This document shows positions 18,142 to 25,469 of a DNA stretch of 64,000 bases, one piece after another. A model generated the notes under the pieces. That model saw only the letters and a list, made by a program, of their open reading frames with translations, made no database searches and was not told the origin of the DNA. Origin of the DNA: Gammaproteobacteria bacterium Milos-ODIII6 (GTDB lineage: Bacteria > Pseudomonadota > Gammaproteobacteria > Chromatiales > Chromatiaceae); contig JAPTHR010000007.1 of the NCBI GenBank assembly GCA_029228645.1, positions 62,005 through 126,004 of the forward strand. Direction: 5' to 3'. Every line of letters begins with the position of its first letter. Position 1 is the first letter of the stretch. Made by a program: the position numbers and the translations under genes.

Positions 18142-19068
18142 ATGACCCTGAACGAGTTGAGATACATCGTGGCTGTCGCCAGAGAGCGACACTTTGGACG
18201 TGCTGCAGAGGCCTGCCACGTCAGTCAGCCGACACTCAGCGTGGCGGTGAAAAAGCTGGAGGACGAACTGGGCATCCGGCTGTTCGAGCGGCGCAAGGGC
18301 GACATCAGCGTCACCCCGATCGGGGAGCAGGTGATCGGCCAGGCACAGCGGGTTCTGGAAGAGGCCAGTGGGCTGCGCCAGATCGCCGCCCAGGGAAAGG
18401 ATCAGTTGGCTGGGCCGCTTCGCCTGGGGGCGATCTACACCATCGGCCCCTACCTGCTACCGAACCTCATCCCGAGGCTGGCGGATGCCGCACCCAATAT
18501 GCCGCTGGTGGTAGAGGAGAACTACACGGCGGTCCTGAGTGAACGGCTTAAACAGGGCGATCTCGACGTCATCATCATCTCACTGCCGTTCGAGGAGCCC
18601 GGTCTGCGGACACTGCCACTGTACGAAGAGCCCTTTGTGCTGTTGATTCCCAGTTCGCATCCGTTCAACCAGCGCAAACGTGTCGATGTCGATAAGTTGA
18701 GCAAGGAGGACGTCCTGCTGCTGGGGTCGGGGCATTGCTTTCGCGACCAGGTGCTGGAGATCTGCCCGGACTGCCTCGGCAAGAGCAGCGAGGGCCACCC
18801 CCGCCAGACCATGGAAGGGAGTTCCCTCGAGACCATCCGCTACATGGTGGCCAGTGGCCTGGGTGTCACGGTGCTGCCCTGCACGGCGGCCGGAGCGGAG
18901 CGATTCTCCGAGCGTCTGCTCGAGATTCGCCGGTTTTCCGGGAAATCACCCAGCCGCGTGGTGGCGCTGGCTTGGCGCAAGAGTTTCCCGAGACCCGAGG
19001 CGGTCAATCTGCTGCGGGAGACGATTCAGGCCTGTCGACTAAGCTGTACGCGTAATGTCAAAAAGTAG
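18142..19068 (+). CDS. oxyR: Peroxide-sensing regulator OxyR
   Basis: LysR-type regulator: an N-terminal helix-turn-helix (HFGRAAEACHVSQPTLSVAVKKLE) and a sensor domain with the OxyR redox pair in GHCFRDQVLEIC, the two Cys nine residues apart as in E. coli Cys199/Cys208. I chose ATG at 18142, giving 308 residues and the family N-terminus MTLNELRYIV; the frame extends to 17995 without support. OxyR activates peroxide defence genes when these Cys form a disulfide. An OxyR-type operator lies just after its stop (19075), preceding rubrerythrin, so its direct target is next door. Confidence 0.95.
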   Translation: MTLNELRYIVAVARERHFGRAAEACHVSQPTLSVAVKKLEDELGIRLFERRKGDISVTPIGEQVIGQAQRVLEEASGLRQIAAQGKDQLAGPLRLGAIYTIGPYLLPNLIPRLADAAPNMPLVVEENYTAVLSERLKQGDLDVIIISLPFEEPGLRTLPLYEEPFVLLIPSSHPFNQRKRVDVDKLSKEDVLLLGSGHCFRDQVLEICPDCLGKSSEGHPRQTMEGSSLETIRYMVASGLGVTVLPCTAAGAERFSERLLEIRRFSGKSPSRVVALAWRKSFPRPEAVNLLRETIQACRLSCTRNVKK

Positions 19069-19074
19069 GACTCC

Positions 19075-19112
19075 AATAGGTTTAATCTATCGGAGGAATT
19101 ACCAGAAACAAT
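19075..19112 (+). promoter_or_regulatory. OxyR operator upstream of rubrerythrin
   Basis: ATAGGTTTAATCTAT at 19076-19090 matches all ten fixed positions of the OxyR half-dyad consensus (ATAGntnnnanCTAT). A second, weaker dyad, ATTACCAGAAACAAT at 19098-19112, starts exactly 22 bases later and keeps six of ten positions, the spacing expected for a bound OxyR tetramer. The site ends just before the predicted -35 box at 19113, as in activated OxyR promoters. Confidence 0.78.
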
Positions 19113-19197: not shown

Positions 19198-19617
19198 ATG
19201 TCCCTGAAAGGTTCCAAGACCGAACAACACCTGAAGGATGCGTTTGCGGGCGAATCCCAGGCCAACCGTCGCTACCTGTACTTTGCCGCCAAGGCGGATG
19301 TCGAAGGTTTCAACGATGTTGCCTCTGTATTCCGTTCCACCGCGGAAGGTGAGACCGGTCACGCCCATGGGCACCTGGAGTACCTGGAGCAATGCGGCGA
19401 TCCGGCCACCGGCCTGCCGTTTGGTGGTACCTCTGACAACCTGAAGACCGCCATCGCTGGCGAGACCCACGAGTACACCGACATGTACCCGGGCATGGCG
19501 AAAGATGCGCGCGACGAAGGTTTCGATGAGATCGCTGACTGGTTTGAGACCCTGGCCAAAGCCGAGCGTTCTCACGCCAACCGTTTCCAGAAGGCTCTGG
19601 ACACCCTCGGCGACTGA
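19198..19617 (+). CDS. Rubrerythrin without rubredoxin domain
   Basis: A 139-residue ferritin-like di-iron protein. Glu/His ligand motifs are visible as [29 protein letters not shown] and [10 protein letters not shown], arranged as in rubrerythrins, which reduce hydrogen peroxide to water. There is no C-terminal CxxC rubredoxin domain, so another protein must supply electrons; the adjacent Fe-S oxidoreductase is the obvious candidate (inference). The ATG at 19198 has TGGAGG seven bases upstream; a longer frame starts at 19171. A strong terminator follows, so expression of the next gene probably comes from read-through or its own promoter. Confidence 0.92.
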
Positions 19618-19687: not shown

Positions 19688-21016
19688 ATGGCAGGATCCA
19701 GAGAAGGCAGTCTCGAGGCGCCCACCCGGCACGCCCTCGATTGGTCCAATCCGGACTTTTACAACGAGGACAAACTGTTCACCGAGTTGGAGCGGGTGTT
19801 CGACATCTGTCACGGATGCCGGCGCTGCGTGAGCCTCTGTCATTCCTTCCCGACCCTCTTCGACCTGGTGGACGATTCGGAAACCATGGAGGTGGACGGG
19901 GTTGCCAAGGACGACTACTGGAAGGTGGTTGATCAATGCTACCTGTGCGATTTGTGTTTCCTGACCAAATGTCCGTACGTGCCGCCACACGAGTGGGACC
20001 TCGATTTCCCGCACCTGATGCTGCAGGCCAAGGCGGTCAAGTACAAGAAGCAGGGCGCGTCATTCCGTGACAGGACCCTGACCAGCACCGACAGGCTCGG
20101 CAAGTTTGCCGGGTTCCCGATTGTCGCTGGCGTGGTCAACAGCATGAATGGTAACAAGGCGTTCCGTGGCGTGCTCGAAAGCAGTTTTGGCGTGCATCGG
20201 GATGCCGTGCTGCCCAAGTTTCACAGTAAGTCGCTGCGTAGCCGGATCTCGCCGGATGACGGCAGCGGTGCCGAGGCGGCCGGCCCGACCACAGGCAAGG
20301 TAGCCCTGTTCGCGACCTGCTACGGCAACAAGAACGACCCCAAAAGCGGCGAGGACCTGGTCGCCGTGCTGCGCCATAACGATATCCCGGTGACCCTGGC
20401 CGACAAAGAGGTCTGCTGTGGCATGCCCAAGCTGGAGCTCGGTGATCTCGAGGCCGTTGCGCATGCCAAGGAGGTCAACATACCCGCTCTTGCCAGGCTG
20501 GTTGACGAGGGTTGGGACATCATGGCGCCGGTGCCGTCGTGCGTGCTGATGTTCAAGCAGGAGCTGCCGCTGATGTTCCCGGACGATCCGGAGGTGGCCA
20601 AGGTGCGCGACGCGATGTACGACCCGTTCGAGTACCTGATGCTGCGCCATAAGTACGGCAAGCTGAAGACCGATTTCAAGGGCGAACTCGGCAAGGTTGC
20701 CTACCATGCGGCTTGTCACCAGCGGGTGCAGCGCATCGGCCCGAAGACAAAGGAATTCCTGTCGTTGATTCCGGGCACCGAGATCGAAACCATCGAACGC
20801 TGCTCCGGGCATGACGGCACCTACGCGGTCAAAAAGGAGTTCCACGAGCTTTCCATGAAAATCGCCCGGCCTGTGGTCAACAGGGTCAAGCAGGGCGAGG
20901 CGGCGCACTACAGCAGTGACTGCGCCATGGCCGGTCACCAGATCGCGAACGGTCTCGGCGATGGCAGCGAGCCCGAGCATCCAATGACCCTGGCACGTAT
21001 TGCCTACGGCATCTGA
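19688..21016 (+). CDS. Heterodisulfide reductase-related Fe-S oxidoreductase
   Basis: A 442-residue soluble protein of the HdrD/GlpC group. Two N-terminal 4Fe-4S sites: Cys41, Cys44, Cys47, Cys51 (CHGCRRC...) and Cys84, Cys87, Cys90, Cys95 (CYLCDLC...KCP). The C-terminal half has CCG-domain elements: EVCCGMP, AACHQRV and SSDCAMAGHQI, but the second CCG is ERCSGHDG, with Ser in place of one Cys, so its cluster may be non-canonical. Its place between rubrerythrin and a ferritin-like gene suggests it passes electrons to rubrerythrin or handles thiols under oxidative stress. Next start is 20 bases downstream. Confidence 0.85.
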   Translation: MAGSREGSLEAPTRHALDWSNPDFYNEDKLFTELERVFDICHGCRRCVSLCHSFPTLFDLVDDSETMEVDGVAKDDYWKVVDQCYLCDLCFLTKCPYVPPHEWDLDFPHLMLQAKAVKYKKQGASFRDRTLTSTDRLGKFAGFPIVAGVVNSMNGNKAFRGVLESSFGVHRDAVLPKFHSKSLRSRISPDDGSGAEAAGPTTGKVALFATCYGNKNDPKSGEDLVAVLRHNDIPVTLADKEVCCGMPKLELGDLEAVAHAKEVNIPALARLVDEGWDIMAPVPSCVLMFKQELPLMFPDDPEVAKVRDAMYDPFEYLMLRHKYGKLKTDFKGELGKVAYHAACHQRVQRIGPKTKEFLSLIPGTEIETIERCSGHDGTYAVKKEFHELSMKIARPVVNRVKQGEAAHYSSDCAMAGHQIANGLGDGSEPEHPMTLARIAYGI

Positions 21017-21035: not shown

Positions 21036-21323
21036 ATGGCTAACGAGGGTTACCACGAGCCGACAGAAGAACTGTCCGACGAGGCGCGCGATCTGCATCG
21101 CGCCATCATTTCCCTGATGGAGGAACTCGAGGCAGTTGATTGGTACAACCAGCGCATGAGCGCGACCAAGGACGAAGAACTGCGTGCGGTGCTCAAGCAC
21201 AACCGTGACGAGGAGATGGAGCATGCGGCCATGGTCCTGGAGCTGATCCGTCGCCGGGTGCCGGAGTTCGACAAGGAACTGCGCGACTGGCTGTTTACCG
21301 ACAAGCCGCTCGCTCACCACTGA
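21036..21323 (+). CDS. Encapsulated-ferritin-like (EncFtn) protein lacking cargo peptide
   Basis: A 95-residue two-helix protein. Segments RHRAI-like HRAIISLMEELEAVDWYNQR and HNRDEEMEHAAMVLELIRRR match Rhodospirillum rubrum EncFtn closely; from memory its ferroxidase ligands Glu32, Glu62 and His65 correspond to Glu30, Glu60 and His63 here. EncFtn subunits form annular decamers with ferroxidase sites at dimer interfaces and are normally packed in encapsulin shells by a C-terminal peptide of LGIGSL type. This protein ends FTDKPLAHH with no such tail, and no shell gene is in the window. ATG at 21036 has AGGAGA upstream; the frame extends to 21000. Confidence 0.88.
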   Translation: MANEGYHEPTEELSDEARDLHRAIISLMEELEAVDWYNQRMSATKDEELRAVLKHNRDEEMEHAAMVLELIRRRVPEFDKELRDWLFTDKPLAHH

Positions 21324-21349: not shown

Positions 21350-21934
21350 ATGGCCAAACTGAGCCGCGAAGACCTCTACAGCCTGGAAAAGTACGCCGAA
21401 GTGCGTCCGGAATATCGTGCCAAGGTGATGGCGCACAAGAAGAACCGTCGCCTGCCGGTCGGCCCGAACGCCAACCTCTACTTCGAGGACCGGACCACGA
21501 TGCAGTATCAGATCCAGGAGATGCTGCGCATCGAAAAGATCTTCGAGGCAGACGGCATCCAGGAAGAGCTGGATGCCTACAATCCGCTGATCCCGGACGG
21601 TTCCAACTGGAAGGCGACTTTCATGATGGAATACTCGGATCCCGATGAGCGCCGTGTGCAGCTATCGCGTTTGTTGGGAGTGGAAAAGCACGTCTGGATG
21701 CAGGTGGCCGATTTCTCCCGAATCACGCCGATCGCGGACGAGGATCTCGAGCGTGAGGACGAGGAAAAAACCTCTTCGGTACACTTCATGCGCTTCGAGC
21801 TGACGCCCGAGATGGTCGACGCGGTCAAGAACGGCGCGGCCCTGAGCGCGGGCATCGATCACCCGAACTATGTCTTCTCGGTTGAGCCGATCCCGCAAAA
21901 TATCCGCGACTCGCTGGCTGGGGACCTGGACTAG
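21350..21934 (+). CDS. DUF3501 family protein
   Basis: A 194-residue soluble, acidic protein that I recognise as DUF3501, from the start LSREDLYSLEKYAEVRPEYRA and the segment LPVGPNANLYFEDRTTMQYQIQEMLR. No catalytic motif is apparent. The family is repeatedly found with rubrerythrin and an HdrD-like Fe-S protein, as here, so a role in peroxide or iron handling is likely by association only. It is 26 bases after the EncFtn-like gene and ends the operon, before a REP array. Confidence 0.82.
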   Translation: MAKLSREDLYSLEKYAEVRPEYRAKVMAHKKNRRLPVGPNANLYFEDRTTMQYQIQEMLRIEKIFEADGIQEELDAYNPLIPDGSNWKATFMMEYSDPDERRVQLSRLLGVEKHVWMQVADFSRITPIADEDLEREDEEKTSSVHFMRFELTPEMVDAVKNGAALSAGIDHPNYVFSVEPIPQNIRDSLAGDLD

Positions 21935-24537: not shown

Positions 24538-24854
24538 GTTTCTCGGTCTTTGCGGTCAATTGAAGCGGGGAATTCTACCTCAAGTACCTGCCGCTGCCGG
24601 TTGTGGCGCTCTCAGAAAGTGTCTTGCGCGAATTCTCTCCACGACAGCGTCCCCGGTAAGCGTTCACGAGCCGTTTTCCCAAGACCGGAATCAAAAGCGC
24701 GGCGTTGTGTGAGGAGATTGGCAGTTTTCCACGACCCCCGCTTTCGCTGGGAATTAATCACTCCAGGTTCCTCATCCGCAACGTCCCAACGCCGCTACAC
24801 GCGACGAAGGCTAGGGCAGTTGCGCCTGAAGCGCATCAATCGCGGGAGACGGAA
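24538..24854. other. Intergenic region, 317 bp, no feature seen
   Basis: Lies between the divergent proS and the repeat-rich secreted protein. No convincing reading frame, terminator or palindrome is visible. It must contain both promoters, but I cannot place them. Confidence 0.5.
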
Positions 24855-25469
24855 ATGAAGTTATCGAGAATTGGATTGTCACAGCTGTTGGCGCTGGCGT
24901 TGTTCGTCTCAGCCGCTTCGCCGGCATCCGCTGGTTTCTTCAGTGGCTTATTCGGCGGCGGAACCTGCGGTCCCATTCGCCAGGCGTTGGGCTGGTGCGG
25001 GAGTTCGGGTGGAACCACGACCGGGGGTACCACTACGGGTGGAACCACTACGGGTGGAACCACTACGGGTGGAACCACTACGGGTGGAACCACTACGGGT
25101 GGAACCACTACGGGCGGGACTACCACAGGAGGGAGCGCCGATACCGGCAGCACTGACACCGGCAGCACTGACACCGGCAGCACCGATACCGGGAGCACCG
25201 ATACCGGCAGCACCGATACCAGCAGTACTGATACCGGCAGTGCTGATACCGGCAGCACCGATACCGGCACGAGTGATGGTTCCGATTCCACCAATGGCAA
25301 CGCTGGTGGAAATGGAGGAGGCAATTCGGGGGGTGGTTCCAGCTCCGGCTCCTCCGGGTCTTCGACTGTTGCTGACAATGCGGTGAAGAGCTTTACCGTG
25401 AGCAATGACGGTGGTTCCTACGCGATCGGTATCAGCGGCGTCGGGCGCGTCAACAGCCAACGTTATTGA
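24855..25469 (+). CDS. Secreted repeat-rich low-complexity protein
   Basis: A 204-residue protein with a signal peptide (residues 1-26 ending SPASA/GF), a short Cys-containing head (CGPIRQALGWCG), eight GGTTT pentads (residues about 52-91), nine STDTG/SADTG pentads (about 94-138), a Gly/Ser-rich linker and a folded-looking tail (NAVKSFTVSNDGGSYAIGISGVGRVN). The DNA repeat unit is 15 bases throughout, so copy number can change by slippage. No homologous family is recognised. GGGAGACGG precedes the ATG at 24855; the frame extends to 24705. The next gene is a pilin 12 bases away, suggesting a shared transcript. Confidence 0.8.
   Translation: MKLSRIGLSQLLALALFVSAASPASAGFFSGLFGGGTCGPIRQALGWCGSSGGTTTGGTTTGGTTTGGTTTGGTTTGGTTTGGTTTGGTTTGGSADTGSTDTGSTDTGSTDTGSTDTGSTDTSSTDTGSADTGSTDTGTSDGSDSTNGNAGGNGGGNSGGGSSSGSSGSSTVADNAVKSFTVSNDGGSYAIGISGVGRVNSQRY
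25008..25127 (+). repeat. Tandem 15-bp repeat encoding GGTTT, eight units
   Basis: Eight in-frame 15-base units, most reading GGTGGAACCACTACG exactly; the first, second and last units carry third-base changes. The five central units are identical, indicating recent slippage or conversion. Confidence 0.93.
25134..25268 (+). repeat. Tandem 15-bp repeat encoding STDTG, nine units
   Basis: Nine in-frame units of AGCACCGATACCGGC type. Variant residues are Ala at position 2 in two units and Ser at position 5 in one. More diverged than the GGTTT array next to it. Confidence 0.9.

What the first reader, a model, noticed from the sequence alone, without database searches (positions are those of the whole stretch)
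21036..21323. EncFtn-like ferroxidase with neither shell nor cargo peptide
Seen: a 95-residue protein aligning closely to the R. rubrum EncFtn core, with the expected Glu30, Glu60, His63 ligands, but ending in FTDKPLAHH without an LGIGSL-type tail. No encapsulin shell is in the window. Known: EncFtn family proteins are usually encapsulated, and the shell gene usually neighbours. Inference: a free-standing ferroxidase, perhaps handing iron or peroxide to rubrerythrin.
Basis: partly seen in the sequence, partly recalled or inferred. Interest (0 to 1): 0.72.

Follow-up and report, generated by a model that had tools for sequence, protein, structure and literature searches.

The report
Shell-less ferritin in peroxide-defence operon
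A small iron-oxidising protein of a family famous for working inside protein shells is here encoded with no shell and no docking tag, inside a hydrogen-peroxide-response operon; the shell-less form turns out to be the common one in this bacterial class.

Summary
ORF 21036-21323 (+) is a 95-aa EncFtn-like protein with every ferroxidase and entry-site residue, no targeting peptide, and no Family 1 or SrpI-like shell gene in the complete genome. A hidden tail is excluded: DUF3501 starts 26 nt after the stop. It is not a novelty as an entity. It is 74% identical to N. europaea NE0167 (PDB 3K6C) and is a textbook "s-FLP", the tagless EncFtn class of a 2024 review.

First, in 274 genomes of the class, 79 carry EncFtn and only 14 of these a shell, so shell-less is the usual state here. 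That argues against the review's suggestion that the conserved s-FLP tail (LFTDKPIAHE) is a cryptic targeting peptide. Among 80 copies, tags occur only in shell-bearing genomes. Second, the gene is an optional insert in a known operon (rubredoxin-less rubrerythrin, Fe-S oxidoreductase RFO, DUF3501), beside oxyR. A near-consensus OxyR box lies at 19076-19112, just before a promoter-like site, and sits at the same place in the three nearest oxyR-linked relatives.

Best reading: a peroxide-induced, free EncFtn ferroxidase that disarms Fe(II) in a genome with no recognisable Dps. The fate of the Fe(III) is unknown.

The parts
18142..19068 (+). OxyR-type LysR regulator (308 aa); the HC-8 residues-C spacing of the two redox cysteines of E. 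coli OxyR is kept (GHCFRDQVLEIC)
   Evidence: Pfam HTH_1 and LysR_substrate; best NCBIfam model OxyR PRK11151, 240.8 bits, below its 329 cut-off. Cysteine comparison with E. coli from memory.
19076..19112 (+). OxyR-box: ATAG-N7-CTAT-N7-ATTA-N7-CAAT, 13 of 16 consensus positions
   Evidence: Only match in 64 kb at up to 3 mismatches, 0.02 expected; 5' half perfect including inner T/A; same place at 13-14/16 in L176, L178, L200
19113..19141 (+). sigma-70-like promoter TTCACT-17-TATATT directly after the OxyR box
   Evidence: 9 of 12; one such site found against 1.1 expected in the region, so it counts only by its position
19198..19617 (+). rubrerythrin without rubredoxin domain (aerobic-type, 139 aa)
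   Evidence: PF02915 3.5e-29; NF045767 matched only over 3-144 of 194
19688..21016 (+). [quoted passage not shown]
   Evidence: PF02754 4.4e-12; GlpC models; named RFO in PMC5114695
21036..21323 (+). tagless EncFtn-like ferroxidase (s-FLP type, 95 aa); ligands E30, E60, H63; entry site E29, E32; tail LFTDKPLAHH
21350..21934 (+). DUF3501 protein (194 aa)
   Evidence: PF12007 9.9e-75; model pLDDT 90.6, PDB match only 3FJV, itself of unknown function

Best explanation
It is a shell-less EncFtn-type ferroxidase (s-FLP subtype), very probably an open decamer like 3K6C, expressed with a rubredoxin-less rubrerythrin, its Fe-S oxidoreductase RFO and DUF3501 from one promoter that OxyR switches on when H2O2 rises. 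Rubrerythrin with electrons from RFO reduces the peroxide; EncFtn oxidises cytosolic Fe(II) at the di-iron site between subunits and so takes away the other Fenton reactant, the job Dps does under OxyR in E. coli. Shown here: sequence, intact ligands, absence of tag and shell, operon and its recurrence, OxyR box. Inferred: decamer, activity, OxyR control, the Dps-like role. Unknown: the oxidant (O2 or H2O2) and where the Fe(III) goes.
For: EncFtn core and every metal ligand invariant in 147 tagless copies apart from one N-terminally truncated one. No shell of either tested family in the genome. 65 of 79 EncFtn genomes shell-less, 57 of them at least 90% complete. 19 of 80 sampled copies lie in the rubrerythrin-RFO-EncFtn-DUF3501 context. 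OxyR gene next door; OxyR box expected 0.02 times in the window and repeated in L176, L178, L200. No separate Dps or classical ferritin: the PF00210 hits are a bacterioferritin-like protein in a carboxysome operon, a rubrerythrin-like protein and the operon's rubrerythrin. R. rubrum EncFtn without shell is an active ferroxidase in vitro (PMC5012862).
Against: R. rubrum EncFtn outside its shell oxidises slowly, does not mineralise iron and lets it precipitate, which makes a free version an odd detoxifier. Most tagless copies (46 of 65 in the sample) lie outside the rubrerythrin operon with no shared neighbour and no clear OxyR box, so the peroxide role may hold only for this subset. Only about a third of the rubrerythrin operons examined have a strong OxyR-like site. 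A same-genus genome has the operon without EncFtn, so it is dispensable to it.
Confidence: 0.6

Rival explanations
1. It is encapsulated after all: the conserved tail LFTDKPLAHH is a cryptic targeting peptide for a shell, as the 2024 review lists for s-FLPs.
For: The review lists LFTD(E/N)KPIAHE as a putative, uncharacterised targeting peptide and sees no steric obstacle. The tail is conserved.
Against: No Family 1 or SrpI-like shell in this genome. 65 genomes keep such an EncFtn with no Family 1 shell. Genomes with both (G025, G207, G258, G247) have an ordinary tagged or shell-fused copy beside the shell and a tagless copy elsewhere. The same LFT..P stretch precedes the real tag in tagged proteins, so it belongs to the core.
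Confidence: 0.05
2. It works as an iron chaperone or maturation factor for the rubrerythrin di-iron site (or for RFO), not as a bulk ferroxidase.
For: Tight operon with rubrerythrin and RFO. Low iron capacity of EncFtn without shell, 10-15 iron ions per decamer.
Against: Most such operons, including one in the same genus, lack EncFtn, so rubrerythrin does not need it; most tagless copies are away from rubrerythrin.
Confidence: 0.15
3. It oxidises iron for storage by another ferritin, such as the bacterioferritin-like protein encoded beside the carboxysome gene csoS1 in this genome.
For: The bacterioferritin-like protein is the only other ferritin-type store found by PF00210.
Against: No linkage between the two loci; bacterioferritins have their own ferroxidase site.
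Confidence: 0.1
4. It is a relic of a former encapsulin cargo that lost its shell and is decaying.
For: A second copy elsewhere in the same genome has an in-frame TAA near codon 12.
Against: The window copy is intact with invariant ligands; shell-less copies are in about a quarter of the genomes of the class.
Confidence: 0.04

Closest known systems
Nitrosomonas europaea NE0167 / Ne-EncFtn, PDB 3K6C (s-FLP class, PMC11202242)
   Same: 95 aa, 74% identical, same ligands, no targeting peptide, same FT.KP.AH tail; best sequence and fold match
   Different: Here the gene is in an OxyR-box-bearing rubrerythrin operon; the context of NE0167 was not examined
Encapsulated ferritin EncFtn of Rhodospirillum rubrum (5DA5) and Haliangium ochraceum (5N5F)
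   Same: Core fold and ferroxidase and entry-site residues
   Different: Those have a 20-40 residue tail ending in a ..IGSL-type tag and an adjacent shell gene; here neither exists. K90 replaces the G usual in tagged proteins
Aerobic-type rubrerythrin cluster RBR-RFO-DUF3501 (Cardenas et al. 2016, PMC5114695)
   Same: Rubredoxin-less rubrerythrin, GlpC-like RFO and DUF3501 in one cluster
   Different: An EncFtn gene is inserted between RFO and DUF3501, and an oxyR gene and OxyR box precede it; the paper's text holds no mention of encapsulin or OxyR
OxyR-controlled Dps of E. coli (from general knowledge)
   Same: Ferritin-family ferroxidase under OxyR, Fe(II) removal during peroxide stress
   Different: Dps is a closed 12-subunit cage that stores mineral; EncFtn is an open decamer that does not. 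Analogy only

Membership tests
EncFtn-like superfamily (PF22277) | Profile match above cut-off | tested here: met
   132 bits against 27
EncFtn-like superfamily (PF22277) | Di-iron ligands E32/E62/H65 and entry site E31/E34 (R. rubrum numbering) | tested here: met
   E30/E60/H63 and E29/E32
EncFtn-like superfamily (PF22277) | Open decamer | not testable with these tools
   Only the monomer was modelled; 3K6C at 74% identity is reported as a decamer
Encapsulated ferritin cargo (FLP-TP, TIGR04535) | C-terminal targeting peptide L(F)xV(I)xxL(I) | tested here: not met
   Ends LFTDKPLAHH; 26 nt to the next start codon; TIGR04535 124.3 bits, just under its cut-off of 125
Encapsulated ferritin cargo (FLP-TP, TIGR04535) | Encapsulin shell gene in the genome | tested here: not met
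   PF04454 none; PF19307 none; other encapsulin families not searched
s-FLP (short tagless EncFtn class) | About 95 aa, no targeting peptide, tail LFTD(E/N)KPIAH(E) | tested here: met
   LFTDKPLAHH, 95 aa
s-FLP (short tagless EncFtn class) | Ferroxidase activity | not testable with these tools
   Needs an assay
Aerobic-type rubrerythrin cluster | Rubrerythrin lacking the rubredoxin domain | tested here: met
   139 aa, profile matched only to position 144 of 194
Aerobic-type rubrerythrin cluster | Adjacent RFO and DUF3501 | tested here: met
   rubrerythrin/RFO/DUF3501 neighbours in 19 sampled loci
OxyR regulon | Four-element ATAG-N7-CTAT-N7-ATAG-N7-CTAT site upstream | tested here: met
   13/16 at 19076-19112, 0.02 expected; 13-14/16 in three relatives; binding itself untested

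The most novel reading that the evidence does not exclude
Shell-less EncFtn is a peroxide-stress ferroxidase in its own right, a Dps substitute that stores nothing but passes Fe(III) (or iron for repair) to operon partners such as RFO or DUF3501, an iron route not described so far.
Probability: 0.25. Interest if true: 0.65.

Novelty: new member of a known kind. Interest (0 to 1): 0.42.

Why it matters
The leading model says EncFtn must sit in its encapsulin shell to store iron, and a 2024 review leaves open whether tagless forms are encapsulated by an unrecognised tail. The genome survey says that most EncFtn genes in this class have no shell to enter, so EncFtn must have a use outside shells; the OxyR-linked operon gives a concrete, testable place to look for it.

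Tried and rejected
Hidden C-terminal tag by frameshift: rejected, 26 nt to DUF3501. Shell elsewhere in the genome: none of PF04454 or PF19307. A shared neighbour for the 118 tagless copies outside the rubrerythrin operon: none; the commonest, a glutathione-reductase-like flavoprotein, is in 12 of 118. OxyR or Fur boxes before those copies: no clear enrichment; OxyR-like sites of 12/16 in 4 of 117 against about 0.3 expected. Function of DUF3501 from its fold: only 3FJV, itself unknown. Tree of 94 columns: few branches supported, so one or several origins of taglessness cannot be decided. Loci from the genome search are not turned to the match strand; row L006 in alignment A1 was therefore nonsense and was not used further.

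Full report
What is there. The ORF at 21036-21323 (+) encodes 95 residues, MANEGYHEP...LFTDKPLAHH. It matches Pfam PF22277 EncFtn-like at 6.5e-39 and falls 0.7 bits short of the NCBIfam model for encapsulin-associated ferritins, whose last positions it lacks (124.3 against 125). The best solved structure is 3K6C, N. europaea NE0167, also 95 aa and tagless, at 7e-43; a model of the window protein (pLDDT 85.6) finds the same entry first, at 74% identity. R. rubrum Glu32, Glu62 and His65 bind the two irons and Glu31/Glu34 form a second site in PMC5012862; the window has Glu30, Glu60, His63, Glu29, Glu32. These residues are invariant in 162 copies read here, apart from one copy truncated at its N-terminal part.

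No shell, no tag, no hidden tail. The genome holds no PF04454 and no SrpI-like PF19307 match. The second profile rang in no control genome, so it was run over the class, where it rings strongly in 5 genomes and again not here. The next gene starts 26 nt after the stop codon.

How unusual is this? In 274 genomes of the class, drawn evenly, PF22277 is above cut-off in 79 and PF04454 in 14. All 14 also carry EncFtn, and 65 EncFtn genomes have no Family 1 shell; with at least 90% completeness the figures are 57 of 71. Two of the 65 (G085, G147) have a SrpI-like shell. Reading 80 copies with their flanks: 15 lie next to a shell, 14 of them with a VGSL/IGSL-type tag or its cut remnant and one in one reading frame with the shell; 19 lie in the rubrerythrin operon; 46 lie elsewhere. 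None of the last 65 has a tag. Copies in shell genomes are 15 tagged or fused and 4 tagless; copies in shell-less genomes are 0 and 61 (Fisher 6e-13, not corrected for kinship).

A natural control. Of the 80 nearest named relatives one, L177 (84% identical), carries GGDAAGDDSGTTVGSLKS after the same DKPLAHH, that is, a regular tag. Its genome has a shell on another contig, whose neighbour ends in a similar tag, LTVGSLKTRR. Two Thiohalocapsa genomes (L196, L207) have a shell with its own tagged EncFtn and, elsewhere, a tagless copy. Tags are found only where there is a shell, and taglessness is not a sequencing accident. This bears on a published open point: PMC11202242 lists the s-FLP tail LFTD(E/N)KPIAHE as a putative targeting peptide. 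Since genomes without a shell keep it, and tagged proteins have the same LFT stretch ahead of their real tag, it is more likely part of the core. Position 90 separates the two kinds: K or R in nearly all tagless copies, never in the 15 shell-linked ones.

The operon. Upstream lie a rubredoxin-less rubrerythrin and a GlpC-like Fe-S protein, downstream DUF3501. This is the aerobic-type rubrerythrin cluster of PMC5114695 with an EncFtn gene inserted. A same-genus genome (G007) has oxyR, rubrerythrin, RFO and DUF3501 in the same order without EncFtn, and 68 of 119 DUF3501 genomes have no EncFtn, so EncFtn is an optional part. Gaps in the window are about 70, 19 and 26 nt and no terminator-like site on the + strand lies between the four genes, which fits one transcript.

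Control by OxyR. The gene before rubrerythrin is an OxyR-type regulator. Seven bases after its stop comes ATAGGTTTAATCTATCGGAGGAATTACCAGAAACAAT (19076-19112), 13 of 16 positions of the ATAG-N7-CTAT-N7-ATAG-N7-CTAT consensus (consensus from memory), the only such match in 64 kb with 0.02 expected; its first half is perfect. A sigma-70-like site follows at once. L176, L178 and L200, the nearest relatives with the same oxyR-linked operon, have 14, 13 and 14 of 16 at the same place; four further operons have 12 of 16, most of the rest nothing. OxyR control is thus well supported for this lineage and not general.

Likely function. The rubrerythrin reduces H2O2, RFO probably supplies electrons (proposal of PMC5114695), and EncFtn oxidises Fe(II). 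This genome shows no separate Dps or classical ferritin by PF00210: apart from the operon's rubrerythrin there are only a bacterioferritin-like protein beside the carboxysome gene csoS1 and a rubrerythrin-like protein. The weak point is that R. rubrum EncFtn alone does not mineralise iron and lets it precipitate. So either the turnover is small, or a partner takes the Fe(III), or tagless forms differ in this respect. None of this can be settled by sequence.

Verdict. Observation confirmed; interpretation right on free-standing, wrong on rarity; a new member of a known class with an informative context.

Noticed in passing
own genome G000:C15:14270-14539 (-), L008 1501-1770: Second EncFtn-like copy, 60% identical to the window protein and also tagless (ends FTEKSLSHD), with an in-frame TAA near codon 12: a probable pseudogene or a shortened protein; close to a PPK2-like gene.
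   Followed up: partly
L177 6001-6339: EncFtn 84% identical to the window protein but with a regular TVGSLKS tag, far from any shell; the shell is on another contig of the same MAG. Tag apparently gained inside the tagless group, a cargo in trans.
   Followed up: partly
G258 (L173, L175): One genome carries two closely matching tagged EncFtn-encapsulin loci about 3.2 Mb apart plus a tagless copy in a rubrerythrin operon.
   Followed up: no
L174 (G207:C227): EncFtn and encapsulin parts appear in one reading frame, like the archaeal fusion type, in this proteobacterial class.
   Followed up: no
L092 1465-1908 and 1124-1432 (G000:C5): Bacterioferritin-like gene directly beside an alpha-carboxysome shell gene csoS1: the window's organism is probably an autotroph.
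   Followed up: partly
window 21350-21934: DUF3501 model matches only 3FJV, a solved protein of unknown function; no relation to any other known fold was found.
   Followed up: yes
window 24705-25469: Small secreted-type protein with tandem GGTTT and STDTG repeats, open in several frames.
   Followed up: no
L011 6162-6458 (-) (G009:C56): Shortened, divergent EncFtn copy lacking part of the first helix, with a 27-residue proline/alanine tail, in a genome that also has a normal tagless copy.
   Followed up: no
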